From: Enchytraeus crypticus
Lineage: Eukaryota; Annelida; Clitellata; Enchytraeida; Enchytraeidae
Reading direction: 5' to 3'
Assembly: GCA_905160935.1 (NCBI GenBank)
Contig: CAJHZI010000552.1
Location: 219,501 to 283,500 of the forward strand
Length of the DNA: 64,000 nt
Shown: positions 1,061-59,600 of the stretch, piece after piece
How the letters are laid out: each line of letters starts with the position of its first letter
Numbering within the stretch: position 1 is the first letter of the stretch
Program-made: the position numbers and the translations under genes
Notes under the pieces: generated by a model
Seen by the model: the letters and a program-made list of their open reading frames with translations, nothing else
What the model was told of the DNA's origin: nothing
Databases searched by the model: none

Positions 1061-1205
1061 CATTAAGCCCAGGGTGGGTTGCTCCACATCGACGGGTTCC
1101 TCCACAGGCAATGTCTCGGGTTCGTAATGGGCAGGACTGAGCGGAGTCTGCTCATATGTGCGCGGAAGTTTAAACCCGATCTTAAATATTTTCCTCCATC
1201 TTCTC
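1061..1205 (-). CDS. Receptor exon 13: juxtamembrane cytoplasmic segment
   Basis: The exon is phase 2 to 0, with donor ATG|GTAAGA. It encodes RRRWRKIFKIGFKLPRTYEQ followed by TPLSPAHYEPETLP. The basic stop-transfer run and nearby prolines fit a membrane-proximal JAK-binding region, but a clear Box 1 is not evident. The next exon lies left of the window or was not recognised in 1-1060. The junction sequence is repeated in the array at 1206-2075. Confidence 0.7.
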
Positions 1206-4200
1206 CTTAAACATCTGTCATGTGATAATAAACACATCACATGTAAATGTCACATCACATGATCATAAATACATCACATGTAAATGTCACATCACATGAT
1301 CATAAATACCTCACGTGATCATAAACACATCATATGTAAATGTCACATCACATGATCATAAATACATCACATGATCATAAACACATCACATGTAAGACAC
1401 ATACGTAAATGTCACGTGATCATAAACACATCACATGTAAGACACATACGTAAATGTCACATTATGAAAAACACATGTAAATGTAACATGATCATAAATA
1501 CATCACATATTAAACACATCTCTTCCTCAAACATCTGTCATATGATCATAAACACATCACATGTAAGACACATACGTAAATGTCACAGGATGAAAAACAC
1601 ATGTAAATGTAACATGATCATAAATACATCACATATTAAACACATCTCTTCCTCAAACATCTGTCATATGATCATAAACACATCACATGTAAGACACATA
1701 CGTAAATGTCACAGGATGAAAAACACATGTAAATGTAACATGATCATAAATACATCACATATTAAACACATCTCTTCCTCAAACATCTGTCATATGATCA
1801 TAAACACATCACATGTAAGACACATACGTAAATGTCACAGGATGAAAAACACATGTAAATGTCACATGATCATAAATACATCACATATTAAACACATCTC
1901 TTCCTCAAACATCTGTCATATGATCATAAACACATCAAATGTAAGACACATACGTAAATGTCACATGATAATAAACACATCACATGTAAGACAAAACTTT
2001 AAATATGTCACATGTCACACACATATGTATATGTGTCACACCTCCTCCTCAAACATTTGTCACATGATAATATAGCTTATTCTAGTATGTAAGTTTCAGT
2101 TCAATTAAATACATTTTAATAAGAACACTGAAAAGGGGCATTCAAAACTGTAGAGTTCACATAAATAACAAACAAACAAGCAAATGCAACAGAAGAAAAC
2201 ACACACTAAATGAGAACAATTGTGAACTTACGTGTAAACAAATAACTATCTGTAATCGCAACAATGGTACAATGGTACAGATAATCGCAACAATGGTACA
2301 ATGCTACAGATAATCGCAACAATGGTACAGCGGTACAGATAATCGCAACAATGGTACAGCGGTACAGATAATCGCAACAATGACCATTTAATTAGTACGT
2401 CGTTTAATTGCGAATATCAGCGAGCTAGGTTACGTGTTACACACGCAACAATGATACAGTAGTACAGATAATCGAACAGTGGTACAGATAATCGCTACAG
2501 TGGTACATATAATCGCAACAATGGTACGGATCACACCCACCTGTACCACGCGTAGAAGCCCACGAGCATGAGCACTAGTACAACAGCTGCAGAGATCACT
2601 ATGGCGCTGATATGAGATGTCCTGAGCACTGGACCAGCTGTTCTTATCTCAATTCTCTTGCTGGGACCTGAAGTCTCTCCTGAGAGAGACACGGAGTGAG
2701 CGACGACCACGTAGCGCCTCTCCTGCACCAGTGAGCCCAGCCTCAGCTCCGTCACGTGACCCGGCGACAGGAAATCCCCAAGTGGAAAAACCCTCCGTGA
2801 CATATCGTCTTCTGCGAAATGAGAAGAGAAAAGTGCGTGGGATATATAGTAATTTAGTTAAAACAATTTAGTTGTTTACATCAGCAACAACTTACAACAA
2901 GCACAAAGACATGATATGTACATGATTCTAGGATTCAAGTGTACATGTAGATTATGATAATGATATATACATGATATATACATGATATATACATGATATA
3001 TACATGATATATACATGATATATACATGATATATACATGATATAAAGCAGTCAATAAATCTGTTGGATACAAGGGGTATTATATGATTGATGGTAGTTTG
3101 GAATGTCATTAAAAAAAGAAAAAATAGGAAATTTTGAAGACAGTTAGAAATGCGTAGAAAGAAAAGCAGCAGGGATTGAAGGTGTACCAATAGATTTTCT
3201 GAAACGTTTCTGAAAACGTTCGAGGGAGATATTCTGTAGAAACTTGTAGGAGCGTATAATATCATTGTATGCCATGGAACTGCCGCTAGGCAGTACACTG
3301 AGAGAGAGAGAGAGTAAGAGAGAAGAGAGTGAGAGAGCGTGAGTAGCTGTGGCAGCCGATTAAAATTTGTTGTTGTTGATGTAGTGGTTACTTTCACTTT
3401 TGCTACATTAGTTGATGTTGTCATTATACGAATATAAAAGTCTATTCGTATCCTGACCCTGGTTAAACTGAGATTTAAGGGAAGATAATGATGATGAGTT
3501 GATGTTGCTATAGTTGTTGCGGTTTTAATTATGTTGTTGTTGTTACTGTTGCTTTCAATGATGTTGTTTTTGTAGTTGTTTTTAATGAGGTTGCTGTTGT
3601 TGCTGCGGTTTTTAATGACGTTGTTGTTGTTGCGGTTTTAATGATGTTGTCGTTGTTGCTGTTGTGGTTTATAAAGTTGTTGTTGTTGTTGTTGCGGTTT
3701 TTAATGATATTGTTGTTGTTGCTGTTGTAATGTAGCGGCCCACCTGACACTGGGTAGGATGACTCATCGTCTAAAACAGCCCAGTAGATGATGATAGCAC
3801 TCACAGGGGCCGGGCAGTCAGCTAAACGTCCTATCACTGTCACACTAAGTGTCACTTCCGTTCTGTCCACCTTAAGTTGACTTAACGTCGGTTTCTCAGG
3901 TACTGCACGCATAAAAAACCGTCAAGTTTATAGCAGACGTTTTGATCGGCCTATCTCTCTCTTCAGTGCACTGCCAAGTGGCAGATTCAAGGTGCATATT
4001 CATACTCAAAGTCTGTTTTCTCGCTCCATAAGAGCACTCCTTAGATCAATGATTTAATCCCTTCACAAAGTCTATGCCTTATCCATACCTTATGTAGCCT
4101 ATAGCTTGGGAAAAGTATGGCTTCTGAGGTGGTTTCTCGTTTCTTAACGGGATGATCGGTCTATATGATTCATAAAAAGTCAACAGGCATTACAATGAAA

Positions 4201-7200
4201 TGATCAACTATGTTGATATTGTGGATATATGACGTCCCTGACATCATCCTTGTATGAGGAAACGGACATTAAACCTTTATTATTATTATTATTATTATTA
4301 TTATAACATATTAACAACAATAATAACAACAATTAGAGTGCTACAGTCATCAATGACAACATCGAGCACTATTGAGACAAAATCAAGCCGGCGAGCAAAA
4401 AGAAGGTCCAAACACGGTGCAAATTACAAAATCCAGATAATCTGTCCAAAGTATATCTATCACTTTAATACCACATGTTTTAACCGTTAGGCAATTTAGA
4501 CCATTTTTCCATACAACCAATTCTGTGAAAGTCCGAGATTTTATTCTTAGATCAGCGCGGCTGGGATTCGAACCCACGAGAGTTCAATTCACCTCAGGAT
4601 CTGTCATTTAAAACTTCATGACGTTATCCCTACGCTATTAATACTTTCTAATAGCATTAAATTCATATGTAGCAAGTTCTGCAAATCTTGATAGCACGAT
4701 TAGATATCATAGGCCCATGTAGCAATTAGTGAATACCTTGTTTGTATCAATTGCCTTTTATTGGATCATTTGACGATTCGAGATCATAAAAGAGAAGATA
4801 AAATACAACAGTTCAATACAACAGTTCAATACAACAGTTCAATACAACAGTTCAATACAACAGTTCAGCACAATAGTTCAATACAAAAGTTCAATAAAAC
4901 AGTTCAATACAACAGTTCAGTACAACAGTTTGATACAACAGTTCAGCACAACAGTTCAATACAAAAGTTCAATACAACAGTTGTATTAGAAGATTTCATT
5001 GGCCAATTTAATACTGCAGTAATTACCACTTATCTTGATAGTAGCAAACAGTTTATCGGCTCATTCGATGAAACCTGACAATTGGAGCACAACTTTTTAC
5101 TAACCCATTTCATACACTAGCAATTAGCGCATACCCTGATTGTAACAAAGGATCCTATGGGCCCATTTGATGCCGCTAGCTCGTCTCCTGTCCCACTCGC
5201 TAACCGCAGCCAATCCAAATAGGTATCTGGCGTCGACGTCATCAGGTGGGAGTGGTATGCTGTAACTGGCATGACGACGAGAGCTTTGACTCCGCCTACG
5301 ACGCCTGTCAGTCAATTCTCTCCACGTAATATCCCCCGCCCTCAACTCCTTCCACATTAGCATTCCCTATAGTAGAAACACATTAGCATTCCCTATAGTA
5401 GGAACACATAGCCCTGTTTACTACACATTAGCATTCCCTGTAGAATAAACACATAGCCCTGTTTATTACAGATTAGTATTATCTATAGAAGAAACACATA
5501 GTCCTGTTTATTACACATTAGCATTCTCTGTAGAATAAACACATAGTCCTGTTTATTACAGATTAGCATTCCCTATAGAAGAAACACATAGCACTGTTTA
5601 TTACACATTTCCCTGAAAAAAGTAAACATGCAGTGTAAATGATCAACTATGTTGATATCTATCACTTTTAATGCCAAATGTTTAAACTGTTGGGAAATTT
5701 AGACCATTTTCCGTATAACCAGTCCTGTGAATATCTGAGATTTTACTCTAAGATAAGCGCTGCTGGGATACGAACCCACGAGGGTTAAATTCATCTCAGG
5801 ATCTGTCATTTAAATCTTCATGACGTTACCCATACGCCATGAAGAAGAAACACATGGCCCTGTTTAATACACATTAGCATTCCCTGTAGAAGAAGCACAT
5901 AGCCCTCCTTATTAATGGCTGGAGCCCGTGGCGTAGACGGTAAGATACTCGATCGCGGATCAGTAGGTGCGGGGTTCAAATTCTTGGCTCGCCCATAACT
6001 AACATCGCTTTCGAGTGAGGAAACTGACGTGAACCTTAGCTTTTTACACGCAAGTGTATTATCCCCTGCAGTGGAGCATAAATTCTTGCTTATGACACAC
6101 CTTTCCAGTATCACAACATACAAGCTATATTATGTATTTCAGACTTTGCGCAATAGGCCTAGTGCACAGTCTAAACTTCACTACAAACTAAAAACAGGAG
6201 TTTAATTAGATGAAAATAAAGTAAACAGAAGCCCCACCTTACACATCCGCCCATTAATAGATCTTTCCTCAGCAGGTGCGCTATCTGAGTCATCAGCTGC
6301 TGCAGATGAGTCATCACCAGCAGCAGCAGCTGAGTAAGAGGCAGCAGCTGGGTCAGCAGCAGCAGCAGCTGAGTCATCGACAGAGGCAGTTGAGTGAGAG
6401 GCAGCAGAAAGCAGCAGACTGGAGTCAGTGGTGGAGGCAGTGGTGGAGAACGACCCAGCGAGACACCAGACAGCAGTATAGTTCAAGGCATCATCAGTGA
6501 CGGTCCAGTGCAGAACTGCCTGAGATGATGAAGTCTGGTGCGTCAGAGTATCATTTAAAACAACCACCGGCTCTGATATCTCCACTACTGCGATCAATCA
6601 ATCAATCGATCAATCAATCCATCAATCAATCATCATCCTCCTCCCTTGAATCCCAACTAGGGTCGGGATACAAATAGACTGTCTCAAATCCTCTCTGTTC
6701 TACACCACACCATCAGCCAATCCCCTATTTGAGACTTACATTCGTTTAAATTATTGTAGCCATTTCTGGAGTCTAGGAGCTCACCAACCGAAAGCCCTTT
6801 CTGACGTTGGTAAAATCAATCAGTCGATCGATAATAGATAATCAAACAATCCATTAAATTGTCTAACAATTTATTTAAAAAACATCAATTAATCCATTAC
6901 TGTAATAGATTTAACTGCAATTGCCTTTAGTTCAAGTAATTGGTGATCAAATTCTGCATAACCTACTGATGGAACAATATATTGATTGAATATTTAATGA
7001 TAGAATTATCGATTAATTAATTGATTGATTGGCTACATACTATCAGAGCATAAGCACAACAATCTAATTAAATGACGTACACTCTAAAATAGTACATTAT
7101 CATCTTCCCTTGAATCCCAGTTTAGCCAGGGTCGGGATTCAAATCCTCTCTGTCATACACCACACCACCAGCCAATACCCTATTTGAGACTTTTCCATTC

Positions 7201-9211
7201 GTTTATTTTTTTGTAGCAATTTCTGGAGCCTAGTCGTTCACCAACCGAATGCCCTTTCTGACGTTGGAACGAATCTTACTGCTTTAGTCGCCTTCTACGA
7301 CACGTGCAGTCACCGGTTGATCAATTCTTCAAACAACCCGGACACAACACAGTGAACAAGACTAATAATAATAACAATAATAAATGTTTAACGTCCGTTT
7401 CCTCATACGAGGATGATGTCAGGGACATGGATGATGTCAGCAAATAATAAAAAAATATAAAAAAATAAACGTCTAAATTTAACGCTTAAAACCCAACATT
7501 TGTCACAATAAATCTTACATTCGGCAGATGGCGGCACCCGTACGACGGGTAGATGCAGAGAACTGTTGTAGTCCACTGTCTTGGCGGAGATCATACAGCT
7601 CAGCGGATGATTGGCGGACAGGTTAGCCACCGCTCGGTGGTGCGGTTCAGCCGGGTAGCCTCGGGGCGGCGGCAGAAATTCCTCCATCGACTTGACTTTC
7701 TTCTCGTAGTCGATGCACTCGATGCGGTACATCGTAACGCGTCCCCGCGCCTCGCCGTCTGTCATGGGCTGTAGCAATAGCAGCAGACGTTATTATAGTA
7801 AAGCTTTTGTAGTACGAAATGGGCAGGCCGACATTTATTACACTTGTAATAAATAAGATAAAATAGATAAGGCACAGGGGGTCCACGTCGTCATAAGCAG
7901 AATCCCCTAAGAATAATGGTGTATTAAAAGGAATGTTGAAGATGATTTAGAGATCCACTCGGATGTGGACATGAAGAGGAAAACGAAAGATAGAGATTAT
8001 TAGAGGCGTTATATATCCAGGACATATATGTGAAACATGGACCTTAAGGAAGGAAAATATTAGGAAACTAGAGGCATTGGAAATATGGATTTGGAGAAGA
8101 ATGGAGAGGATTAGCTGGACTCAAAAGGTTACAAATGAGGAAGTCCTGGAGAGAGTTGGCACAGATAGACAGTTGATAAATGTATTAAGAAATAGGAAGA
8201 AGAGATGGATAGGACACATTATAAGGGGGGAGGTCTATTAAAAGAGGTCATAGAAGGTAGAATGGAAGGAAAAAGAGGCAGGTGCAGGCCGAGATTAGGT
8301 ATGTTAGATGATTTAAAGACCCACTCATATTTGGACATGAAGAGGAAGGCGGAAGACAGAGAAGAGTGGAAGAAGAACACTATATACCATGGACCTGCCT
8401 GTAGGCAGTGCACTAAGAGAGAGAGTACGAAATGACCCAAAAGATAACATCATCATCATCATCATCTTCCTGTAAATCCCAGTTTAACTAGGGTCGGGAT
8501 ATGAATAGACTTGAATGACCCAAAAGATATAATATTAATAAAATAAATAAATAAACACACCTAATTATTAATATAAAAAGTTATATACTATAATATGGTT
8601 GACAGAATAATGTACTTGATTTAGAATTAATTTATGGAATACTATTCCACCTTATAAATGCAGTTTAGTTTAATTAGAGCAGTTAATTTGCACTTAACAA
8701 GCGAGTACCTCATCTGCATAGTATATTATTACTCTGGGTTTAACGTCCGTTTCCTCATATCACGATGATGTCAGGGACGTCCCCTCATCACATGTCACTA
8801 CAAATCGATTCACGATAAACGATCTGAAATAAACATGTGCTGTAGAGAAAGAAAAATATCCTAAACGGTGATTCAGCACGTAGTACTGCTCGAATCATTT
8901 TTATCCAGCTACATGCTCAAGACACCCGGGATATTAGACAAATGTTAACAATAAACTAAAATATCTGTCGTTGGAGTATGAAGTTGCTCCGGTAGCCATT
9001 GAAAACTGGGAATCCCCCGTGAATTCCGATGAAGTTGACTTCATTAATAAACTGCCGATATGCTGGAGATCTGTTTTCTTTCGTAAAGGCTTTTTATGAC
9101 TTTGCAAAGATTTAATTCAGCCCGCTTCAGCAATTTTTTTAAGCAGCTAGATTGATCGAATCGTTTTTATCAAACCCGGGGTCATTACACGAGGATAATA
9201 AATATAAAATA

Positions 9212-9247
<36 letters not shown>

Positions 9248-9341
9248 TAATAAAAATAATCCAATAATATAATAATCACTATAATAATAATAATACCAAT
9301 TTAATATAATACCAATATAATACCAATATAATAATAATAAT

Positions 9342-9382
<41 letters not shown>

Positions 9383-12300
9383 TAATAATAAGTGATAGGT
9401 AAGAGGACTACTGCCGTTACTGGAGATTTACGTGAGAAATCTTTCCTGTGGCAACGTTTGTCAATGGCTCTGCAGCGATACAATGCAGTTTGTTTCCGTG
9501 GTACTTTTGGTGACACGGCATTTTGGAGTGGAGAGCAGGATTAAAAAAGAAAAAAAGAAAAAGAATCCCCTACTTAGGGGGTTAAAAAAATCATAATAGT
9601 AATAATATTAATAATAATTTTTAGAAAAAGCTAAAGTTAACCTTACGTTAGATTCCTCACTCGAAAAGATGGGCGAGCCCAGGATTTGAAACCGCTCATA
9701 CTGATCTGCAGTCGAATATCTTACCGACAACGCCACTGGCTCCAGCCAATAGTAAAAAACGCCAGTAGCAACTAACAACTAGGCATGACAGTATCAACCA
9801 GGTCTCACCTGGAAGTAGATGACGACTGTTCTCCTGCCTCCGCTTCTCTCCACTTCCTCGAACACTGCTGAACTCACGTGCGGTGACGACGTGGGCACTT
9901 CACAAACAAATTAACAAAAAAAGCTAGTAAAGCTAATGTTATAGGAAGTTTCCTGACTAGATAGCGATATCAGTGACGGTCGAGCTCAGGATTTGAACCC
10001 CGCACGTACTGATCTGCGGTCGAATATCTTACCGACATCGCCAGTGGCTCCAGCCAGAGGGCGATGGCGAAATATTAATCCATCAACAACAGTATTCGTA
10101 GGATGAGAGTACTACAGGTAATATAATTGATTGATTATAATATATTAATCACATTAGCCTACACAATATAAAATTGTAACTAATCCATAATTTAAATCAC
10201 TCTTGAGGTTTAAACCGCAGATTGGTCACTAAATCCATAGTTTAAATCACTCTTGAGGTTTAAACCGCAGATTGGTCACTAAATCCATAGTTTAAATCAC
10301 TCTTGAGGTTTAAACCGCAGATTGGTCCCTAAATCCATAGTTTAAATCACTCTTGAGGTTTAAACCGCAGATTGGTCACTAAATCCATAGTTTAAATCAT
10401 TCGTGAGATCGTTAAAACTGTTGCATATCTCGCTAGTGAATGTGGCCGTGTATATCTGATTGATTGATTGATTGACTATTCAATTGGTATAGCAGCACAC
10501 CTAGCTCTGTCGTATTGTACGTGTAATTGCTCCACTCGCTCCACTCGCCATTGCACAACGGCCTGCAACTCACGGATACAACACAGTGAGCGTAGGCAGG
10601 AGAGTACATTAACAGCATGATCTCTCCCTTCATCTCACTCGCCTTCTCCGGAGTCCTCTCAGCTTTCTGCAACAGCATCGTCATTAGTGAGACTATCTGT
10701 GTCATTAGTGACACTATCTGATGCAACTGTGTCATTAGTGACTCTATCTGAAGTAACTGTATCATTAGCGACACTATCTGATACAACTGTGTCATTAGTG
10801 ACACTATCTGAAGTAATTGTGTCATTAGTGACACTATCTGATGTAACTGTGTCATTAGTGACACTATCTGATGTAACTGTGTCATTAGCGACACTATCTG
10901 AAGTAATAGCGTCAGCAATGAGACTATCTGAAGTAACTTTCTGAAGTAACTGTCTGAAGTAACTGTCTGAAGTAACTGTGTCATTAGTGACACTATCTGA
11001 AGTAACTGTGTCATCAGTGACACTATCTGAAGTAACTGTGTCATTAGTTACACTATCTGAAGTAACTGTGTCATCAGTGACACTATCTGAAGTAATAGCG
11101 TCAGTAATGAGACTATCTGAAGTAACTGTGTCATTATTGACACTATCTGAAGTAACTGTGTCATTAGTGAGACTATCTGAAGTAACTGTGTCATTAGTGA
11201 AACTATCTGAAGTAACTGTGTCATTAGTGAAACTATCTGAAGTAACTGTGTCATTAGTGAGACTATCTGAAATAACTGTGTCATTAGTGAGACTATCTGA
11301 AGTAACTGTGTCATTAGTGACACTATCTGAAGTAACTGTGTCAATAGTGACACTATCTGAAATAACTGTATCATTAGCGACACTATCTGAAGTAACTGTA
11401 TCATTAGCGACACTATCTGAAGTAACTGTATCATTAGCGATAGTTTAAAAATATCCAAAATAAGCCTACACTAAATCCAAGCTTAACGTCAGATTTCTAC
11501 ATGATAATTAATAATTATAATATATAATAACAATTTCCTTCATCTTTAGACTGATTTTCAGTAATTTGAAATTTGCACCCATTTTGGACCTTCTTATTGC
11601 TCACTGGCTTGGATTTGTCTCAATAGTGTCTGATGGTGTCACGGACGACAGTAGCACTGTAATTGCTGATATTATCATTATTATGATACCATGAGAGTGA
11701 CGGTGAGAGCATTGGTAAAGCTAAGGGTAACGTCAGTTTCCTCACTCGAAAGCGATGTCAGTGATTGGATGTGAATTTTGCACTTACTGATCAACTTTGA
11801 ATAACTTGCCTACAATCCACCGGCTCAGCCCAAAACTTGAACAATATAAAAGATCCTAAAGATCTGTCCGTTTGCACTATCAACATTTCTCAAATAAAAT
11901 ACGTGCATTACTCCAACCTCAACGAACAGATTGGACTCTTCTGGACTACATACGATAGACTAGACACAAAGCTGATGAAGCTAATTTTAACGTCAGTTTC
12001 CTCACTCGAAAGCAATGTCAGTGACGGGCGAGCCCAGGATTTGAACCCCGCACATACTGTTCCGTGGTCGAGTATCTTACCGACATCGCCACTGGCTCCA
12101 GCTACAAAACACGTAGAAACAAGAATCTTTAATAAATCCAGCACTCAAGCGTACAGTACCTCAGTGTAGTTCCTGAGCGGACAGGTTAGGCTGATGTTGT
12201 ATTTTAGGGGTTTGCCGGAAGCTGGAGGTCTAAATGCTATTTGATATAAGGAAGTTCCTTTAATTTCCTTAGCAACCAGTTTTTGGACAGGACCGGGTCG

Positions 12301-15300
12301 TACTGTTTAATCAATCAATCAATAAGTCAGTAGGCCAGTAATAAATGAATCAATATGTAAATCAATCAAGCAAAACAACACGGATATCATTAATCAATCA
12401 ATAACAAATTAATCAATCAGTATAAAAAACAATCGATCAATTGATTTAATATCAAAGCAATTGTAAGTCAGTCACACCCACAATTGTACAAGTTTTATTA
12501 ATTCACAGGTTAGAGGCTACAGTTAGCTATAGAGATAATCCTATGTTAAATTAATGATTGATTGACAATCCTTATTCAGTGATTGATAGGTGACTGACAA
12601 CTGATTATTACACTTACTGAATGACTGATAGATGACTGACAACTGATTATTACACTTACTGAATGACTGATATATGACTGACAACTGATTAATACACTTA
12701 CTGAATGACTGATAGATGACTGACAACTGATTATTACACTTACTGAAAGACTGATAGATGACTGACAACTGATTATTACACTCATTTAAAGACTGATAGA
12801 TCACTGACTACTGATTAGATTATTACACTGAAAGAATGACTGATCTCTACACCTACCTATACTAGAAAAGCAGAGAATTCTATCGCCCTCTTTCGCTCTA
12901 TCTTACACCTACCTATACCAGAAAAGCTGAGAATTCTATCGCGCTCTTTCGCTCTATCTTACACCTACCTATACTAGAAAAGCTGAGAATTCTATCGCCC
13001 TCTATCGCTCTATCTTACACCTACCTATACTAGAAAAGCTGAGAATTCTATCATCCTATTTCACTCTATCTTACACCTACCTATACTAAAAAGGCTGAGA
13101 ATTCTATCATCCTATTTCGCTCCATCTTACACCTACCTATACTAGAAAAGCTGAGAATTCTATCATACTATTTCGCTCTATCTTAGACCTACCTATACTA
13201 GAAAAGCTGTGAATTCTATCGTCTTCTTTCACTCTATTCACTCTATCTCGCTCACTCTCCGGCAGTTGACTGAGCACACATCTGACTTTCACGAACAGCG
13301 TGTCATCGTCTGCCCCGACCCGTTCATGGATGCCGGGCACCCTGCACTGAGACACGGGCAGACCTGCGGGTGTCGTAGTGGTGCTCACTTCCGTGCAGTT
13401 CTGATACGTCTCGTTCAACCTACAATACAGCGAAATACATCAACCTACAATTCAGGGAACTACATCGACCTACAATACAGTCAAATATATCAACCTATAA
13501 TACAGTCAAATACATCAACCTACAATACAGTGAAATACGAATGATGGGTTAAAATACAATATGTTACAATATAATAGAATATTCCCCAGGAAATGATACA
13601 ATAGAATAGAATACAATACAAATACAATCAAAGGAAGATGATGATGATGACGGTAGAAAAAGACTACAAAGAACATTACAAGCAAATCCGGTCTCAAGCC
13701 ATGGATTAATCAATCAATCAATCAATCAATAACCCTGAACTGAACTGAGATACAAGCAGATAACTTGATATAATTTCTTTCACGTAGGTTGTAGTAATTC
13801 AATTATCGCTGATGTGAAAATAACTGTGGTCGGCACTATATTTAAAGGAATTCGGCGAACAGGTAGGTTCCATTTTGTCGAAATATTCATGTTTTAAAGG
13901 AAAATATTTCGACTGAGCACTGTAAAAATCAGGAACAATTTGAAACTGTCAAACTGATATCTAAGATGATCTAAAGCTAAAGAAGTCAAGTTTAGCTTCA
14001 GTTCAGTGCTCAAATGAGTTCTCAGTGTAAAAGCTGGTAAAGTTAATGTTAGCGTCAGTTTCCTAACTCGAAAGCGATATCAGTGACGGGAAAGCCCAGG
14101 ATTTTAACCCCGCACATAGTGATCAGCAGTCGAGTATCTTACCGACATTGCCACTGACTCCAGCCCAGTGTTGGAGAGAACACTGTATTTGAACCCTGCA
14201 CTTACTGATCGGCTGTCTAACAACTTGCCAACATGCCACCGAATCAGACCCCATGACGATGACAACAACTAAGAAGAACGACGTTAAATCCTATCTGATC
14301 GGCGCTCAAGTGGTCACCTCTTTGTGGTATAGAAGGCTGAGCAGTACTCCGGATATGAACTGTTCCACGTGAACAACAGGTCTTTCCAGTTGAACACCTC
14401 CACGTGCAATATTGTCACGTACAGCGGCTCTGCAAAACACCACAATGTTCTTCTCTAATGGGTAATTTAAATGAAAACGACTCAAAACACCACAATGTTG
14501 TTTTCTAATGAATAAATTTAATAAAAACGACTCAAAACACCACAATGTTGTTCTCTAATGTGTAAATTAAATAAAATCGACTCAAAACACCACAATGTTG
14601 TTCTCAAATGAGTAATTTAAATAAATACGATTCAAAACACCACAATGTTGTTTCCTAATGAGTAACTTTAATAAAAATACTCAAAACACCACAATGTTGT
14701 TCTCAAATGAGTAATTTAAATAAATAGGGCTCAAAACACCACAATGTTGTTTCCTAATGAGTAAACCACATGAAAACCATTCAAAACACCACAATGTTGT
14801 ACGCTAATATAGTAAACCAAATAAAAACGACTAAATTCATTAAATCTGCCATGGGCAGATGCTCTTTCATGATTTCTGTTCCTACAATATGGAACTCTCT
14901 GCCACAAGATCTTCAATCATGTAATCGAATTGGTACATCCTAGGCAAGCTAAAAACCAATCTCTTTACGACATATTTCGCAATTTTGACCCTCTAGCCTT
15001 GGATCTTGGACTTACACTGTTTTGATTTCGCTTTCTCTTATGGTCTCTGTGTACTCAGTCGTCATCGAGTGGTGCTTTGGCACCTGTCTGTGTAGAATCT
15101 GCAAGAGACGTCCGTGACATTGCCACACGGCGAGGAACAGGATGTTAAATTCTTAATGAATGATTGATTGATGACATCCTTCCCCTTAGGATGTGTCCTC
15201 TCCAACTTTTCTTCCTATTAAATGCATTAAGCAATAGGAAGACGAGTTGGAAAGGACACATCCTAAGGGGGGAAGGTCCATTATTAGAGGTCATAGAAGG

Positions 15301-18300
15301 AACAGTGGAAGGGAAAAGAGGCAGGGGCAGGCAGAGATTAGGTATGTTGAATGATTTGAAGACCAACTCATATGTGGAGATGAAGAGGAAAGCGGACGAC
15401 AGAGAAGAGTGGAGGCGTTACATACCATGGACCTGTCAGTAGGCAGTTCACTAAGAGAGAGAGATTGATTGACTGAGATAGGTAAGAAGCAAGTGCCACA
15501 TACTCATAATATGTAACACGGCGCCCCAGCATATGTCCTGATCTGACATGAGAACGCACTCTACCAGACAACCGTTGTGGCTCATGTTCACCTGATACAC
15601 CAGGTGTCTGTGGGTTTGGTTAACCTCACGTTCATCCACCTTTTCCCCGCAGCCCTCCCCCAGGACTTTAAAAGCCACGCTTGCTGCTCCTAGAGACGGG
15701 TGGATCGAGGGTCTATTCTCCGGCGAAGACGGGGTTTTCACGGTAGAGGAAATTTCCCAAGAAGATTGGTTTTTCTCAGACAATGAACTTTCTTTGGTTG
15801 GGTTTTCCCCAGTGGGTTGTCTATTCCCATCCGAGCGGGCGTTTCCGTCGTGGTTGAGCGGGAAAGAAGGAAGGATGTCCGAGGTGGGGAGAGGGGTGGA
15901 GGGAATGATACAGTACAGATCCGTGATTGTATCCTCCACTACATATATATCTCCAGTTGGATGAAGTTCTAACAAAAAAATAAATAAATCATTCAATCAA
16001 GAATTCACTCAATCCACCGATCGTTTAGTAGTAATATTATTTAACAGATCATATACAAGGTTCGCCTATCACAGCTGCTTCTTAGAGAGACGAATATAAA
16101 AGTAATCAATTAATCTATTTATTACAAGAAATATCATTTAATAAATCGCCGAGTCATACTAGATGTTATTTAATAAATCGTTTAATTTATTGTGATTTGA
16201 GTCACAATAAATGTCATTTCATAAATCAAAATCAAGGTTTTTTCAATATCGATCTTTTGTGAGAGATGAAAGCCACGCAAAACTCTGCTTTTGCCATAAA
16301 TTCTTATTAGCATAATATATTATATGATGAGATTAAATGATGCCCAGTCATCAGCTCATTAACGCCGCCCACTGTAGTCACGAACTCATTTACCACATCA
16401 TGCACAGTCAACAGCTCATTAACGCCGCCCACTGCTGTCATGAACTCATTTACCACATCATGCTCAGTCATCAGCTCATTAACCCCGCCCACTGCTGTCA
16501 TGAACTCATTTACCACATCGTGCTCAGTCATCAGCTCATTAACCCCGCCCACTGCTGTCTTGAACTCATTTACCACATCATGTCAGTCAACAGCTCATTA
16601 ACCCCGCCCACTGCTGACATGAACTCATTTACCACATCGTGCTCATTAACCCAGCCCACTGCTGTCATGAACTCATGTACCACATCATGCTCCCACCCGT
16701 GATTGGCACATATGATCGACACATGATTGACACATGATCGACACATAATTGACACATGATTGACACACATGATTGACCCATGATTGACACACATGATTGA
16801 CACGCATGATTGACACGCAAGATTGACACACATGATCGACACATGATTGACACACATGATTGCCACACATGATTGGCACCCATGATTGACACATGATTGG
16901 CACACATGATTGGCACACATGATTGGCACCCATGATTGACACATGATTGGCACACGTGATTGGCACACATGATTGGCACCCATGACTGACACATGATTGG
17001 CACAAATGATTGGCACAAATGATTGGCACCCATGATTGACACATATTATTGGCACACAAGATTGACACATATGATTGACGCGTGCAGCCTATGACCGAAC
17101 AGAACTCGACGAGTAAATAACTGAACGACCTTCACCCTGTCCTACATGTAGGTCAAGCGATCGTCTCAGTAACGTCATCACACTAGTCACGTGCTCTCGA
17201 GCGCCTCACTATTGTTAACAACAGTTCTGCTGACAGGTGACGAGCTAATGACAGCACTTCTCTCACACAAGGTCTGTGGTCTAATTGTAGAGCAATTACA
17301 CTCTCTCTTAGTGCACTACCTACTGGCAGGTCCATGGTATATAACGCCTCCACTCTTCTCTGTCTTCCGCCTTCCTCTTCATTTCCACATATGAGTGGGT
17401 CTTTAAATCATCTAACATACCTAATCTCGGCCTGCCCCTGCCTCTTATTCCTTCCATTCTACCTTCAATTACACTAATAATAACAATTTAGCGCAACAAG
17501 TGTAATAATAAAGTAAACACGCATCATAGTAAAATGATCAACTATGTCAATATCTATCACTATTAACATCACATGTTTAAACCGTTAAACAATTTAGTCC
17601 ATTTTCCGTATAGCCAGTCCAGTGAACATCTGAGATTTTACTCTTAGATCAGCGCTATCGGGATTCGAACCCACGAGTGTTAAATTCACCTCAGGATCTG
17701 TTATTTAAAAACTTCACGACGTTACAACTGCGCTATTTAGACATTCAATAACAATAATAAAAATTTTGTGCAACAAGTGTAATAATAATAAAAATTTAGA
17801 GCAACAAGTACAATAATAATAACAATTTAGAGCAATAAGTGTAATAATAATAATAATAATAACAATTTAGAGCAACAAGTGTAATAGTAATAACAATTTA
17901 GAGCAACAAGTACAATAATAATAACAATTTAGAGCAACAAGTGCAGTAATACTAACAACTTAGAGCAACAAGTGTATTAGTAACAATTTAGAGTAAAAGT
18001 GTAATAATAATTTAACAATTTAGTGCAAACAAGTGCAATAATAAATAGTAATAACGATTTAATGCAACAAGTGCTATAATAATAATAATTTAGTGCTATA
18101 ATAAAACAATTTAGAGCAACAAGTGCAGTAATAGTAACAACTTAGAGCAACAAGTGTAATAATAATACTAATAATTTAGTGCAACAAGTGTAATAATAAT
18201 AATAACAATTTAGTGCAACATGTGTAAAAATAGTAACAACTTAGAGCAACAAGTGCAGTCATAATTACAATATATTTCAACAACTACAATATCATTATAT

Positions 18301-46624: not shown

Positions 46625-46935
46625 AAACCTAGCTAAAACTCCACTAACTCCAGACTTTTCTAGAACTCTGCCCAGTCTTATCTGAGACTCTACTAAGTCT
46701 AGACTTTTCCAAACCTCTGCCCATTCTTATCTGAGACTCTACTAGTAAAGTCTAGACTTTTTTCTAGACTTTTCCAAACCTCTGCCCATTCTTATCTGAG
46801 ACTCTACTAGTAAAGTCTAGACTTTTTTAAACTCTGTCCAGTCTTATCTGAGACTCTACTAAGTCCAGACTTCTTTTAAACTCTGTCCAGTCTTATCTAA
46901 TACCCCACTAAGTCCAGACTTTTCCAAACCTCTGT
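46625..46935. repeat. About 50-bp minisatellite after the stop codon of the right-hand gene
   Basis: Six units of CTTATCTGAGACTCTACTAA and AGTCTAGACTTTTCCAAACC, probably in the 3' untranslated region. Confidence 0.9.
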
Positions 46936-46968
46936 CCAGCCCTGTTTAACACTCAGCTCAGATCCTAA

Positions 46969-47643
46969 CTAATATCCATCTCCTCGCCAGTCGCCCCTTC
47001 CACCACGCGACAGCCCGCCTCTGAACGGACCTGTAGAGCTGCTAAAAGACGGAAGACTAGTATTGCCACTACCCAACGCTCTCTTCAAAACCCCGCGCCC
47101 GCTGCTTCCACGGTACCCGCTGCCTCGGTAACCGTCGCCGCGGACGCTGCTGCTGCGATTACCGCTAGCAGAAGCACCGCTGCCCCGTACAGTGCGGCCA
47201 CCCCTAGGAGAGGTACCACCACCTAAACCACGACCAGTCTTACAGCCCACAGCAATTCCTACTCTCTCACCCTCTTCAGCCACGTCACCGCTACCGACTG
47301 CCGTACCCTCGCCGCTCAAGAACGTGGCTTTTTCGTTGAACGGGTCGCCCTCCGTGCCGTCCCAAGCATCGGCACCGTTGAGCATGACCGGCACAAGCCG
47401 CTCGACCACGCGGCTCAGCGGTACGAACGACTCCTCCGTACTCATCTTGACGGAGAGTCGCGACAGGTCGAGTTTGTCTAGAATGCTGCGCATGTCGTCG
47501 CTGACAGCGAGACGAAACTTGCGGAGGATTTCGATGATTAGCGTCTTGTTTCTGACGCGCGTTATTGCGCTGATGGCCTGCACGGTGCTGCGGTCAAACA
47601 GCGAGAGCTTGGCGCAGTTAGATCCGTCGTGCTTACCCGTCAC
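46969..47643 (-). CDS. Unknown gene, terminal exon g
   Basis: 224 codons and the stop, with acceptor AACTAACAG. It starts with a helical part (LSLFDRSTVQAISAITRVRN, LRKFRLAVSDDMRSILDKLD). An acidic linker and an RGG/GYRG-rich tail ending RGDWRGDGY follow. RGG tails commonly bind RNA. Confidence 0.87.
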   Translation of the reverse strand: MTGKHDGSNCAKLSLFDRSTVQAISAITRVRNKTLIIEILRKFRLAVSDDMRSILDKLDLSRLSVKMSTEESFVPLSRVVERLVPVMLNGADAWDGTEGDPFNEKATFLSGEGTAVGSGDVAEEGERVGIAVGCKTGRGLGGGTSPRGGRTVRGSGASASGNRSSSVRGDGYRGSGYRGSSGRGVLKRALGSGNTSLPSFSSSTGPFRGGLSRGGRGDWRGDGY

Positions 47644-50600
47644 CTGTTAGTTATCAACCAGTTAATAATCAGTCATAGCTTAACTACGATTATGCTTAGA
47701 ATTATAGTTAGCTGCACCAGTGCTACTATGGAGGGTTTAATATAGTGGCGAGTATATATCAATTATTGCTCGTAATAATAACCAATCTACCAATCAATTA
47801 AACAATGAAATTATCATTAATTGAATTAATTAAAGAATGACTAAATCAACCAATTAGTCCACGCGGCAATAAAGAAATCCAGTCAATAGTAAACTCTCTT
47901 AGAGACTACTTTCCAACCTTCTTTTAGGCCCTGGTAATTTTGTCATTTTCCCAAATTTTTAATGCCTTAAGAAGTTTAGACTTACTAAAAAGCATAATTT
48001 ATCGTGTTAAGAGAGTGACAGAGAGTAAGAGCGAGAGAGAGATAGACAGAGAAGCAATACCAAAAGAGTGAGTGAGAGCGGAGGAAAGCGACAGAGATCG
48101 GCAGAGAGAGAGAGAGAGACAGAGAGAGGCTACTAACGTTTTCCCCTTCAAACAGTGTACTGAGCAGCTGACCAAGAGCTGCTGAAAACATTGTGATCAC
48201 ATCTTCCTCATCCATTCCTGCCAGCTATCATCAATCAATCAATTAATCAATCAATCAACCAAATTTAGAATTCATCAATTTACCAAATGAAGGTATGAAT
48301 TATGGAATCAATAAAACTAAATTGTTCTTAACATTTTGATAACTCTTATTCAGTAAATCAATCATATTCAATCAATTGATCTAATTCAATCAATAGATCG
48401 ATAAACTAGATGAGTATGTATGACCACCAACCAGTGACTTGTTAATATCAGATGACTCTATCTTATCTACAAATGATCAGCTATGCAATATGAATGTCTC
48501 AATGGCGCAATGGTTAGAGGTGTAGATAACGTCAAGAAGTTTTAAATGACAGACCCTGCGGTGAATTGAACCCTCGTGGGTTCGAATCCCAGCCGCTCTG
48601 ATTTGAGAGTAAAATCTCTCACATTTACAGGACTGGCAACACGGAAAATTGACAAAATTGCTTAACGGATTTAACATGTGATATTAAAAGTGATAGATAT
48701 CAACGTAGTGGATCATTTCACTGGAATTTTTGTTATTATTATAGTTATTTTTTGTCACCACTAACCAGTGACTTGCTATCCTTGGACGACTCTATCTTAG
48801 CCACTTTGGTTGGTACAGGACTATCGACCTCTCCTGCACTCGATGACCTCTTGGCACCAGCAGGATTTGCTGAGGATCTGATGGTTAGAGGCACAACGTT
48901 GCCATTCTTCCAAGCATCCTTGCTCTCATCTGAACAACAAATTAAATCAGTATAAATGTTTAATCAAAATCCTTGTTAATCGTAGTTAGCCAAGGATCAT
49001 CAAGGATTTGCGAGCATTAAACATTTCATGGAAAGACGCTGTGAAGATTGCTGATGATAGAAACGAATGGAGGAATGTTCAACGTCCCTGACGTTTCCTC
49101 GTATGAGGAAACGGACGTTAAACCTTTATTATTATTATTATTATTATTAATGTTGCCGCTCTATGTTCTGTACAGAACGCAAGTAACTGATGATGATGAA
49201 GTTTAATCAAAATTGTAATTCTAAACAATGTAATTATTTCAATTAAAGCTGGTAAAGTTAATGTTAACATCAGTTTCCTCACTCGAAAGCGATGTCAGCG
49301 ATGGGCGAGTCCAAGATTTGAACACCGTACATAATGATCCGCGGTCGAATATCTTACCGACATCGCTACTGGCTCCAGCCAAAACTATGGATGTTACAAG
49401 TATGAATAGATAGAATTGCAACTAGGATTGTGTAATGAAATTCGATTTGTAGGCTTGTTGTAAACTTTGTTTCATGTACAAGCTACCTGGTAGTCTAGTT
49501 TAAGAAAAATTGCAGTTCATACAAGTTTCAGTAAATTGACAGATTTATAGAATCCCATAGGATAGAGATATGTAGTGGACCTGCCAATAGGCAGTGCACT
49601 AAAAGAGGTAGAGAGAGATAGGATCCTATAGAAGTCCGAGCACAAAATCCTGCATTCATATATAAATACTGATTTAATTTTAAAATAATGTAATCCCAAC
49701 ATTCGCTAACCTGTATCTACTACGGACTCTTTTCCAGGTGTTTCCTGCTGAGAGGACTTTATCAATTCTTTTCTAACAGCAACTCCACCTGGAGAACTCT
49801 GAGCATCCACAATTTTCATCTTATCAGTCTTAACTGAATCAAGTTTAATAACATCGACTGAATCAGATGCCACAGATGATTTAGCTGGATTAGGACTATT
49901 GATATCTGCTGATTCAGATTTATCGCCTGGTTTAACCGGACCAGAATTAACGGTAGTGACAGGTGGAATAGGTTTATTTGACTCTGGTTTAGATTGTTTA
50001 GAGTCTTTGCTTGCAATAGCTGGACTAGGCTTTATAGCAGATTTGTCACAGTTGCCTTGCTTTGATTTATCACCGGGTTTACTAGAGCCTGGGACAGAGG
50101 AAGTTGTTTTACTGCCTGTTGTAACGGATCCCGCTTTTGGACCCACGACCTTTGACCCAGGTATTTCTCCTGGTTTGCTCTTCAATTGTTTAAGCGATCC
50201 TGGCTGACTCAATATTTCGGAAGTCCTACCCGACTTTGCTGATCCAATGGTACTGCTGTTCTTCATTGGAGCTTTTCTTTCCATAGATGTTGATTTCTTC
50301 AAAGATGAAGCCGCTGTATCACCAACGTCCGGTAGTAACGGTGGAACCTTTCTTCCCGTTGTCACTGGCATGGATTTAATGAGAGGCTCAACATCTTCCC
50401 AACCCCTTCCAGATTCCAGAGATCTGAACCTTCCACTTGACGGAGAATCAGACGAGGAAAGAAGATAGTCTGGCACGTCGTCAAGGTTCTGGATGTACAG
50501 AACGGCCTCTTGTAGTAAACCAGTGGGAACTGCCTCAGCTAGGCTATTGAGCTTGTGGGCAGGCAGAGTACCGGCCAAGAGCTTACGCATCGTCGGCAGG

Positions 50601-56600: not shown

Positions 56601-59600
56601 AGCAGCAGTTTTTATATTGTGAAGACTATTATTAAGCCACATTTCGTGTCTTGTTTAGTTGGACTCAAAGTATTAGCAGCAATTGAATCAGGTATATCAA
56701 AGGTACAGGCGTACCAAAAGTATTAAGAGTGGCTGAGCTCTTCTAGAGCTGGTTTAGCCAGACCAGTAGTAATGGATAAACAGAATAGATATATAGATAG
56801 AGTGATTTATGAACATCCCAGTCTTGATCAAACTTTGCCATACGATTGAAATGGTAGAGATGGAAGAGAACTGTTTCACTTGAAATCTTAATAGAAGATT
56901 CGTCATATTTATCTGAGTCGCTTCAGAAGATTACAAATTCTTTGTCAAGAAAGAATGGCTTGGAGTAGAAGGCGCATCATAATGATTTCAAATACGCTCA
57001 AATGTTGCTAGGCTCTAATTTCTTCAGCTTTGTTTTCTACTTCTACTTCTTCGAATGGCAACTGACACGTCGAGAATGTTAAACGGCTATTCCTTCCGAT
57101 GAGGTTTCTTATTTCAATGAGAGACAAAGGATGTAAGAAAGCAACGGGCCAGATGTTTGGTCTTTAATTTAGATCCATTTCTCAAGAGAGATGTGTGTCT
57201 ATTAATATGTCAGAATTTATTAAAATGCGATGTAATCTAATGATATATGATTAATACATGACTATATGGTCAAATCTAACCACAAAATCATATTAATAAG
57301 ACATATTCTCACTTTTACGAGGAACAGTTAAAATGGACAGGTTGATAACATTCACTGATATAAGTTCAAAATCTTTGAACCAATAATTTATCCCAATCCA
57401 ATGACACGATCTGATCGGCGGAGAAAAGATGCATCAAATCGGAGTACAAGAGGAGGGAGAAAGGCAAAGCTTGCTCCAATCTTGCAAAACGATACAAGAC
57501 AACTACCAAGGAAATTGGTTTTAAGACTAAAATCCTTCCAGTTGGCATCCCAGGCAGAGTCTGTTTAAAATTCTGAATACTTCACACAATGCAGGATTTA
57601 AACAGTTGTTGCTGTTGTTGTCTCTCTTCTAGTACGCTAGGCTACAATGCTGCCATCCTTTCGAAAATTTTATCAAAGTGAATAATATCACTACCGGGGT
57701 GGCTCCAATTCTTTAGAAGAGCGGGGACGACAATAAGGCATAAGAGAAATGACGAGATAGCAAAATTAATATGAGACTCGGTAAAACGTGCGGGAGGGGA
57801 GACAAATAGCACAAGGAGAGTAGAATATTATTAAATGTATCTATCAGAACTTATCAGTATTTAATTATTAAAATGTTCACTTTGCATCTGGGATATTAGT
57901 ACTACAGAATTAACCAATCTGCATTGCATGCATGCAATATGCACTGCATTTATTCGAAGCAGACAAAGGAGTCAAGGAAGGTAATAGAAGAATTTGATGT
58001 TTCCTTTAAATTAAACTGTTTAAGATTCATAAGGGGTTTAGCAATGTTAATTATAGATCTAGTGTAATATCTTTTTTAACCATTTAGTTAGTGAGATGAG
58101 CCATTCGTATGTATATACGAAAAGAATGTTACTATGGAGAATGCGTACGAATACAGGCTATTCGTATATGTATATTGAATAACAATCATAGATCTATACT
58201 ATGCACTGCATTCATCCAAGACAGAAAAAGAAGCTGAGAAAGGCAATGAAAAATTGCTTGAGAGGTCATGCTTTCTCAGTTAAATCAGAACATTAGGATT
58301 TAGTTCAAGAAGAACCTTTCATTAACTAGCTCTTTAATGCATGGCTCTTTAGAGGGCGGAAACAAACCGAATGAAGAGAATTAACTCTACTAGAATTTTA
58401 TATCCTGGATGGTCTGAAATTTAACAGCAATAATCATTGATAATGTACTTCATTTATAATTATTGCAATTAAAACCATACAGCTAAGTTTAAAAAGCTAA
58501 GTTAAATGTGTTTTCTTATCACTTAGGAAACTGGCTAGACTCAGTGGCGAAGTCAGTAAGATACTTGGCCGCGGATCAGTTTGTGCGGGGTTCATATCCT
58601 GGGCTCGCCCGTCACTGACATCACTTTCGAGTTAGGAAACAGACGTTAACCTTAGCTTTAAACTATATAGGCTATATGAAAGGATATGAAAGACAAGATT
58701 GCTCACGCTATGGACTGCCTAAGGCAAGGATAAGCGTTAGCCTTTTTTGGAGGATTAATTTGTTGATCCGTGGAGTGTTCTTTATAAGAAATCATTATTC
58801 CATCAGTTTACACTCTATTGTTTAAAAAATACTCTATAATCACCTGGTGCACCGCTCTTTCCATCAGTTTAAGCTATCGTTTAAAAAATACTATAATCAC
58901 CCGGTGTACCGCTCTTTCGTTCAGTTTACACTCAATCGTTTAAAAAATACTATAATCACCCGGTGTACCGCTCTTTCCATCAGCTTACACTCAATTGTTT
59001 AAAAAATACTCGAATCACCTGGTGCACCGTTCTTTCCATCAGTTTATACTTTATCGTTTAAAAAATACTCTAATCGCCCAGTAAACCACTCTTTTCATCA
59101 GCTTCCACTCTATTGGTTAAGAAATACTCCAAACGCTCGACATACCCGATGGTAAACTCCGAGGACAGAGAGCCCTCCTCCACACAGACTGGTCTGGGTA
59201 GTAACACCTTCCTCCTCTCATGACCTCCTCCTGTCTCGTCGTCACATCCCACTGGGACCGGCAGTGGAAGCAAACCGCCGGTCTTACCGCCACTCTCCTC
59301 GAGTCTCGCAGTCGGCGACGGTAGCGGCAGAAGGGCCGGCTTCTTACCACTCGCAGGCGAGTTGTAGCCAGACGGTTTCTCACCAAGGAGTCCCGTTCTT
59401 GTTCCTGTCTTCGTGGGCGAAATATAATCCGGATCTTGAGAGCCGTCGTCTAGCATCATGCCCAACGGGGGCGGAGCTTTGCCGAGCAAAGACTCGGCTC
59501 TGCCAGCCAATGAGGCGCCGGCGCTTGGAGAGGTTCCGAGCAACGAAGAACTTCTTTTACCGTCTAGCTGATCGGGCCTTGGGCCCAACAACGGCTCAGT

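What the first reader, a model, noticed from the sequence alone, without database searches (positions are those of the whole stretch)
1206..14815. Minisatellites nucleated exactly at splice junctions of one gene
In the cytokine receptor gene at least six tandem arrays start at an exon edge and repeat the splice-site sequence. They are at the acceptors of exon 3 (14430-14815), exon 4 (13420-13545), exon 6 (10667-11445), exon 10 (5367-5910) and exon 13 (1206-2075), and at the donor of exon 4 (12840-13255). Units at exons 4 and 10 carry the AG and the first exon bases, giving rows of near-identical decoy 3' splice sites. Ordinary minisatellites should not prefer junctions. Replication slippage at intron ends, an insertion mechanism using proto-splice sites, or selection on splicing could each explain it.
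Basis: partly seen in the sequence, partly recalled or inferred. Interest (0 to 1): 0.85.

Follow-up and report, generated by a model that had tools for sequence, protein, structure and literature searches.

The report
Splice-junction minisatellites in an annelid worm
In this worm genome short tandem repeats cluster at the edges of exons and often copy the splice site together with neighbouring coding bases, in several unrelated gene families; such arrays were known from amphioxus as mirages, and here they seem common enough to test how cells ignore rows of near-identical decoy splice sites.

Summary
The arrays are real. In a receptor gene (LIFR/gp130-like; 12 exons seen, phases agree at all 11 introns) 9 of 22 intron ends have a tandem-array edge within 15 bp or reaching into the exon; about 1 is expected. 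All six named arrays exist; three more were missed. They are not exactly at junctions: edges lie from 45 bp inside the exon to 15 bp outside, and exons 3 and 6 show no clear copies of exon bases. The host is an annelid, almost surely Enchytraeus crypticus. At 234 junctions of myosin, CCT and SNF genes, chosen without regard to arrays, array edges are 3.2 times denser near junctions than deeper in introns (95% CI 2.2-4.5). Copies spanning the junction occur at 26 of 116 acceptors and 11 of 114 donors. This matches amphioxus 'mirages': tandem duplications across exon-intron borders that expand into the intron, the exon-proximal copy presumably being spliced. Decoys keep AG/GT and are often no weaker. 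Insertion at proto-splice sites is not supported. Why edges are favoured is open; three of six stop codons examined also carry arrays, which argues against a purely splicing cause.

The parts
14433..14832 (-). 50-bp minisatellite, 8 copies, ending 3 bp upstream of the exon 3 acceptor (exon 14318-14429); units read TTTTGAG, authentic site TTTTGCAG (by eye); exon bases not clearly copied
   Evidence: TRF; sequence; exon map; distances
13415..13538 (-). 25-bp minisatellite, 5 copies, across the exon 4 acceptor (exon 13193-13419); units carry the AG and about 5 exon bases; AG present in all five copies by eye
12843..13237 (-). 56-bp minisatellite, 7 copies, across the exon 4 donor; unit holds the 3' end of the exon plus GTAGGT; 6 decoy donors score the same as the authentic one
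10680..11437 (-). 30-bp minisatellite (about 25 copies) starting 13 bp upstream of the exon 6 acceptor (exon 10501-10666); TCAG in most units by eye; the exon frame is open back to 11047, so a longer exon is not excluded
6593..6632 (-).
5353..5609 (-). 45-bp minisatellite across the exon 10 acceptor (exon 5135-5366); reaches 14 bp into the exon; 5 mapped decoys, all with AG
3523..3728 (-).
2456..2531 (-).
1223..2014 (-). 37/126-bp minisatellite at the exon 13 acceptor (exon 1061-1214); units carry near-copies of the exon start; 4 of 5 mapped copies keep AG
1061..15968 (-). 12 exons of a class I cytokine receptor gene (LIFR/OSMR-like, WSEWS in exon 6, membrane span in exon 12 by eye); 11 phase-consistent introns
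   Evidence: PDB phmmer
58798..59129 (-). 59-bp minisatellite spanning the stop codon (ends at 59070) of a second gene; first unit is coding
46638..46939 (-). 49-bp minisatellite starting 29 bp after the stop codon (ends at 46969) of a third gene
61220..61371 (-). 78-bp array ending 13 bp upstream of an acceptor at 61206 (second gene, hand-set)
48230..48262 (-). (TTGA)n 5 bp upstream of the acceptor at 48224 (third gene, hand-set)

Best explanation
These are 'mirages': a stretch of DNA that straddles or adjoins an exon-intron border was tandemly duplicated, and the copies multiplied into the intron as a minisatellite. Because growth is into the intron, the exon-proximal copy stays joined to the exon and remains the working splice site, while the other copies are decoys that pre-mRNA splicing must ignore, most simply because the two sites of an exon are paired across that exon (exon definition). 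The receptor gene is one of many affected genes in the annelid Enchytraeus crypticus. Shown: the arrays, their copies of exon and splice-site sequence, the enrichment of array edges at predicted junctions of unrelated genes, and that decoys mostly keep AG/GT and are often not weaker by a simple score. Inferred: origin by tandem duplication, use of the exon-proximal copy, exon definition. Open: why exon edges are favoured about threefold.
For: Window: 9 of 22 receptor intron ends, 0.96 expected. Species: mitochondrial contig of 15,205 bp with a gene order that I recall as annelid; the E. crypticus paper gives a mitochondrial genome of 15,205 bp (passages) and 525.2 Mb (abstract) against 524.2 Mb here. 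Genes chosen by Pfam family, not by arrays: array-edge density 2.16/kb from 60 bp inside the exon to 40 bp outside against 0.69/kb at 81-640 bp, ratio 3.15 (CI 2.16-4.54); acceptors 4.17, donors 2.33; 108 validated junctions 4.86 (2.86-9.17). Exon-edge 24-mers recur in the flanking intron at 20 of 117 acceptors against 6 of 466 interior exon windows (P 2e-10), and at 8 of 116 donors against 5 of 462 (P 0.001). Copies that span the junction: 26 of 116 acceptors, 11 of 114 donors; 300 bp into the intron 6 of 84 and 4 of 80; 45 bp inside the exon, by a slightly looser rule, 6 of 114 and 3 of 111. Best cases: a CCT last exon preceded by six full copies of about 23 intron + 63 exon bases, and a CCT exon with 24 + 59 bases, five copies with the authentic one. 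Decoys: AG kept in 70 of 79 copies and GT in 27 of 32 (66 of 79 and 27 of 32 by the mapping); a decoy outscores the authentic acceptor at 14 of 25 junctions with scorable decoys. Two SNF paralogs share a donor array with different copy numbers.
Against: No RNA was available, so exon ends and use of the exon-proximal copy are not proven; at exon 6 an in-frame longer exon is not excluded. Junction prediction without profile or phase help put the receptor's acceptors first in only 7 of 12 cases and donors in 9 of 12. Junction-spanning copies at acceptors are not commoner than at 100-200 bp into the intron to a significant degree (26 of 116 against 24 of 113, 19 of 96, 14 of 86; P 0.18 for +200), partly because the same arrays cover those points; for donors the +100 rate is higher (13 of 106 against 11 of 114) and the comparison with +200 and +300 is not significant (P 0.09, 0.18). 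SNF exons do not show the exon-edge effect (acceptors 1 of 20 against 3 of 78; donors 2 of 20 against 4 of 78). Acceptor hits come from 14 of 44 contig or locus labels and two contigs carry four each.
Confidence: 0.78

Rival explanations
1. Constraint-edge shelter: tandem arrays arise everywhere in noncoding DNA, but next to coding sequence they last longer, because deletions that would remove them often run into the exon and are selected against, and one copy is always retained. Splicing plays no part. It explains the preference, not the arrays themselves, and is compatible with the mirage reading.
For: Three of the six stop codons that I could place have an array spanning them or starting within 40 bp (window 59070 and 46969, CCT gene on C368); three do not (window 62016, CCT gene on C795, HSP60-like gene on C385, whose only repeat is a coding GGM tail that ends before the stop). 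Arrays are common in introns generally (31% of receptor intron bases; 12% of sampled segments).
Against: By my own reasoning, untested, shelter should give at most about a twofold effect; the measured ratio is 3.2 to 4.9 and edge density falls sharply beyond 40 bp. Acceptors exceed donors in junction-spanning copies (26 of 116 against 11 of 114), which shelter does not predict.
Confidence: 0.3
2. Local mutational hotspot: the U/G-rich tract before acceptors, often (TTGA)n, slips or switches template and seeds duplications that reach into the exon.
For: TTGATTGA lies within 60 bp of 24 of 129 acceptors and 1 of 128 donors; its complement near 1 of 129 and 13 of 128. In several of the best cases the microsatellite sits between the copied exon pieces. 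Array edges peak within 40 bp.
Against: Junctions with such a microsatellite are not clearly more often mirages: acceptors 10 of 32 against 16 of 84 (P 0.21); donors 4 of 13 against 7 of 101 (P 0.02). By eye receptor exons 3, 6 and 10 lack it.
Confidence: 0.3
3. Selection on splicing: extra copies of the branch-point/acceptor region or donor strengthen recognition and are kept.
For: AG and GT are kept in 70 of 79 and 27 of 32 copies, about as well as neighbouring bases; the edge effect is stronger at acceptors.
Against: Retention is what high copy identity alone gives; authentic acceptors are weaker than some decoy at 14 of 25 junctions; arrays also occur at some stop codons; period and decoy distance show no frame preference.
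Confidence: 0.12
4. Insertion of an element at proto-splice sites (introner-like), later tandemly multiplied.
For: Arrays lie at splice sites.
Against: In the cases laid out, units are copies of the local exon edge and intron tail, and their lengths differ (22 to 109 bp in 21 exon-reaching arrays). I ran no search for a sequence shared by all arrays; the only shared motif noticed is the TTGA/TCAA tetranucleotide.
Confidence: 0.03
5. Chance: introns are so full of arrays that some must abut exons.
For: Array density is high in this genome.
Confidence: 0.03

Closest known systems
Amphioxus 'mirages' (Adh3, globins, troponin C, PGBD5; the 2002 Adh paper was not held, I know it from passages of PMC3087553 and PMC3902484)
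   Same: Minisatellite-like tandem repeats whose unit spans an exon-intron border, at 5' and 3' borders, many copies with AG/GT, variable copy number
   Different: There described gene by gene in lancelets; here an annelid, with a measured enrichment over 234 predicted junctions of myosin, CCT and SNF genes. Evidence on mRNA and on somatic instability exists for amphioxus, not here
Internal tandem repeats at exon-intron boundaries of human segmental-duplication genes (PMC2812944, passages seen)
   Same: Minisatellites at exon-intron boundaries that change intron structure
   Different: There repeats lie in exons or lead to new introns in young paralogs, with transcript changes; here the decoys appear silent and the sampled genes are conserved families
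Intron gain by duplication of AG/GT proto-splice sites (Rogers 1989, seen only as cited in PMC3087553)
   Same: Tandem duplication that carries splice signals
   Different: Here existing junctions are multiplied; no new intron was shown
Introner-like elements (recalled)
   Same: Association with splice sites
   Different: Units are local copies; no common element noticed, though none was searched for systematically

Membership tests
mirages | Minisatellite-like tandem array | tested here: met
   TRF
mirages | Repeat unit spans the exon-intron border | tested here: met
   Receptor exon 4 donor and acceptors of exons 10 and 13, exon 4 acceptor by 5 bases; 26 of 116 acceptors and 11 of 114 donors elsewhere. 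Exons 3 and 6: not clearly met
mirages | Occurs at both 5' and 3' borders | tested here: met
mirages | Many but not all copies carry AG/GT | tested here: met
   70 of 79 and 27 of 32 copies; 66 of 79 and 27 of 32 by the mapping
mirages | Normal splicing is not disturbed | not testable with these tools
   No RNA data held
mirages | Copy-number instability, somatic in amphioxus Adh3 | tested here: inconclusive
   Two SNF paralogs with 132 of 135 identical exon bases carry the same donor array with different copy numbers; no second individual
mirages | Host is a cephalochordate, as in the reports that I saw | tested here: not met
   Mitochondrial contig of 15,205 bp with gene order recalled as annelid, length equal to that of E. 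crypticus; a lancelet fluorescent-protein query found nothing (weak alone). I treat the host as distribution, not as definition
introner-like elements | Common insertion sequence at many sites | tested here: inconclusive
   Units laid out are local copies of exon edges; no systematic search for a shared element was made

The most novel reading that the evidence does not exclude
In this annelid, multiplication of exon edges is a genome-wide process: roughly one acceptor in five and one donor in ten carries tandem copies of itself, and some stop codons do too. It would be a general rule of tandem-duplication-rich genomes at borders between constrained and free DNA, would give the spliceosome thousands of natural tests of choice among near-identical sites, and would be a standing source of new exons and introns.
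Probability: 0.4. Interest if true: 0.8.

Novelty: new member of a known kind. Interest (0 to 1): 0.62.

Why it matters
The amphioxus mirages that I could read about were gene-by-gene observations. A second, distant phylum with many cases would turn them into a class that can be counted and tested. Each array is a natural experiment in which near-identical splice sites compete at known spacing, so it bears on exon definition and on how a site is chosen when local strength does not differ. It also makes intron and exon gain by tandem duplication testable, and it warns gene annotators, because decoy acceptors with attached open frames can be called as exons.

Tried and rejected
Amphioxus as the host: the lancelet fluorescent-protein query found nothing and the mitochondrial gene order is annelid as I recall it. 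RNA pairing between (TCAA)n at donors and (TTGA)n at acceptors: no excess co-occurrence within introns (0 of 5 donor-positive introns, 12 of 47 others) or across exons (2 of 14 donor-positive exons, 24 of 114 others). Younger, transposon-rich intron interiors as the cause of the decline with distance: it stays after removing windows that match other loci, but the repeat library was under 280 kb and so incomplete. Microsatellite seeding: weak. Proto-splice insertion: the units laid out are local copies. An extra receptor exon (B, 15084-15151) was dropped because its phases do not fit.

Rows dropped: of 57 CCT matches 5 were left out (one full-length match in a single frame on C373 and four from the contigs C259 and C400 with identical matches); with 81 myosin matches this left 133 cores, of which 97 lay inside fetched DNA. 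For SNF I chose 20 of 93 matches, mostly short ones without internal stops. Denominators differ between calls because each test needs a minimum intron or exon length. The CCT last exon on C795 was seen by eye afterwards and is in none of the counts.

Papers: PMC3087553, PMC3902484, PMC8460440 and PMC2812944 were seen as passages; other papers only as search listings.
Full report
What is in the window. The exon map was rebuilt by hand from open frames and GT/AG sites; reading phase agrees across all 11 introns, though frame helped me to choose some ends. A stretch from exon 5 to exon 8 aligns with LIFR (E 6.5e-6) and, in part, OSMR (E 6.4e-4); exon 6 holds WSEWS. Pfam had no significant hit (one at E 0.33). 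TRF finds arrays at all six places named, with edges from 45 bp inside the exon to 13 bp outside, and three more at the exon 9 acceptor (+5), exon 11 donor (+15) and exon 12 donor (+9). Minisatellites (unit of 10 bp or more) cover 31% of the intron bases and 18% of the window.

Chance. With arrays placed at random within their introns, 0.96 junction-side edges within 15 bp are expected; 9 are seen among 22 intron ends; none of 200,000 simulations reached 9, and none of 60,001 when each array is first collapsed to one unit to allow for growth after seeding. The window was picked because of the pattern, so this alone is not enough.

Which organism. The tool places the window in an assembly of 524.2 Mb and 802 contigs. 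Its mitochondrial contig has 15,205 bp, with all protein genes on one strand, in the order that I recall for annelids such as Lumbricus. The Enchytraeus crypticus genome paper (PMC8460440) gives a mitochondrial genome of 15,205 bp (passages) and 525.2 Mb in 910 scaffolds (abstract). I take the host to be this species; the number of contigs differs.

Test on other genes. I searched the same assembly with Pfam families that know nothing of arrays: myosin head, CCT/Cpn60 and SNF transporters. DNA was held for 97 of 133 retained myosin and CCT exon matches and fetched for 20 of 93 SNF matches. Exon ends were predicted from frame, codon use and splice-site score, with profile continuity and phase where neighbours were known. 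Without that help the predictor is mediocre: it ranked the right acceptor first in 7 of 12 receptor exons and the right donor in 9 of 12. I therefore also report a validated subset of 108 junctions, phase-paired or from 11 SNF exons with the recurring 132 or 135 bp length.

Result. Array edges (unit of 10 bp or more) have a density of 2.16/kb from 60 bp inside the exon to 40 bp into the intron (51 edges) and 0.69/kb at 81-640 bp (75 edges): ratio 3.15, bootstrap CI by contig 2.16-4.54; acceptors 4.17, donors 2.33, validated 4.86 (2.86-9.17). The fall is sharp beyond 40 bp. Exon-edge 24-mers recur in the flanking intron at 20 of 117 acceptors against 6 of 466 interior windows, and 8 of 116 donors against 5 of 462. 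By family the acceptor effect holds in myosin (7 of 54, controls 0 of 216) and CCT (12 of 43, controls 3 of 172) but not in SNF (1 of 20, controls 3 of 78); the receptor itself gives 1 of 12 acceptors and 1 of 12 donors. Copies that span the junction are found at 26 of 116 acceptors and 11 of 114 donors, against 6 of 84 and 4 of 80 at 300 bp into the intron (P 0.003 and 0.18); at 100-200 bp the acceptor-side rate is similar to that at the junction (24 of 113, 19 of 96, 14 of 86), in part because the same arrays reach that far, and on the donor side it is 13 of 106 at 100 bp and 3 of 90 at 150 bp. So the firm result is the excess of array edges and of exon-edge copies, not a steep excess of spanning copies over the nearby intron. 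The decline with distance remains when windows resembling other loci are removed.

Anatomy. The clearest cases are outside the window. In a CCT gene on C795 the last exon is preceded by six full copies (and one degraded) of about 23 intron bases, with (TTGA)n and ACAG, plus about 63 exon bases; this exon was found by eye and is not in the counts. In a CCT gene on C372 five copies, the authentic one included, of 24 intron and 59 exon bases all end their intron part in ACAG. In two SNF paralogs with 132 of 135 identical exon bases the same donor array has different copy numbers. Over all sets, receptor included, 28 of 129 acceptors have 79 mapped copies, 70 with AG; 13 of 128 donors have 32 copies, 27 with GT (denominators). 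A second mapping gives 66 of 79 and 27 of 32. AG and GT are kept about as well as neighbouring bases. By a simple score a decoy beats the authentic acceptor at 14 of 25 junctions with scorable decoys (9 the other way, 2 ties); for donors a decoy wins at 2 of 11, the authentic site at 5, with 4 ties. Distances to the decoys show no preference for a multiple of three (24 of 79; 6 of 32), nor do the periods of 21 exon-reaching arrays (7 of 21).

How it most likely works. A segment across or beside the border is duplicated in tandem, and the array grows into the intron, where length is tolerated. The exon-proximal copy stays attached to the coding frame. Since decoys are often as strong, position must decide; pairing of the two sites across the exon is the usual explanation (established knowledge, not tested here). 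Use of a decoy would shift the frame for 55 of 79 acceptor and 26 of 32 donor copies. None of these steps is shown by RNA.

Why edges are favoured is open. A splicing-only cause is weakened by stop codons: arrays span or start within 40 bp of three of the six that I could place; the other three have none that crosses the stop. The number is small and the gene ends were set by hand. Longer life of arrays beside constrained sequence, or slippage at the U/G-rich tract before acceptors, are the main candidates. That tract is notable in itself: TTGATTGA within 60 bp of 24 of 129 acceptors and 1 of 128 donors, and the complement near 1 of 129 and 13 of 128. Its link with mirages is weak, and no excess co-occurrence that would suggest pairing was seen.

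Comparison. The pattern meets the structural definition of amphioxus mirages as given in passages of PMC3087553 and PMC3902484; the original 2002 paper was not held. Untested: undisturbed splicing and somatic instability. Of ten literature searches eight bore on repeats at splice junctions; in the titles and abstract starts listed I saw the word mirage in this sense only for lancelets. Listings were capped in part (12 of 98 papers) and the library lacks most subscription journals, so this is weak evidence of absence. Human tandem repeats at exon-intron boundaries (PMC2812944, passages) are related but tend to alter transcripts.

Verdict.

Noticed in passing
129 acceptors and 128 donors of receptor, myosin, CCT and SNF genes: Strand polarity: TTGATTGA near 24 of 129 acceptors but 1 of 128 donors; TCAATCAA near 1 of 129 acceptors and 13 of 128 donors. 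Predicted acceptor tracts are T/G-rich and C-poor (T 0.49, G 0.20, C 0.10 at 6-20 bp).
   Followed up: partly
58798-59129, 46638-46939; CCT gene on C368 (L071): Minisatellites spanning or just after stop codons, as at splice junctions; three of six stop codons looked at.
   Followed up: partly
60453-60608 and 59649-59730: In-frame coding tandem repeats (21/42/63 bp and 15 bp) in the long open frame of the second gene.
   Followed up: no
6286-6395: Ser/Ala/Asp-rich low-complexity coding repeat inside receptor exon 9.
   Followed up: no
G000:C259:219813-222410 and C400:245545-248142: Two contigs give identical Cpn60 matches in an 894-aa open frame; perhaps duplicated contigs, foreign or bacterial DNA.
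   Followed up: no
L003-L009: Nuclear-contig fragments resembling mitochondrial cox1 with in-frame stops, probably nuclear mitochondrial copies.
   Followed up: no
for example about 9985-10060, 12030-12100, 49290-49380: Recurring dispersed element by eye (GGCTGGAGCCAGTGGCG...GGGTTCAAATCCTGGGCTCG), tRNA-like and SINE-like, also inside introns.
   Followed up: no
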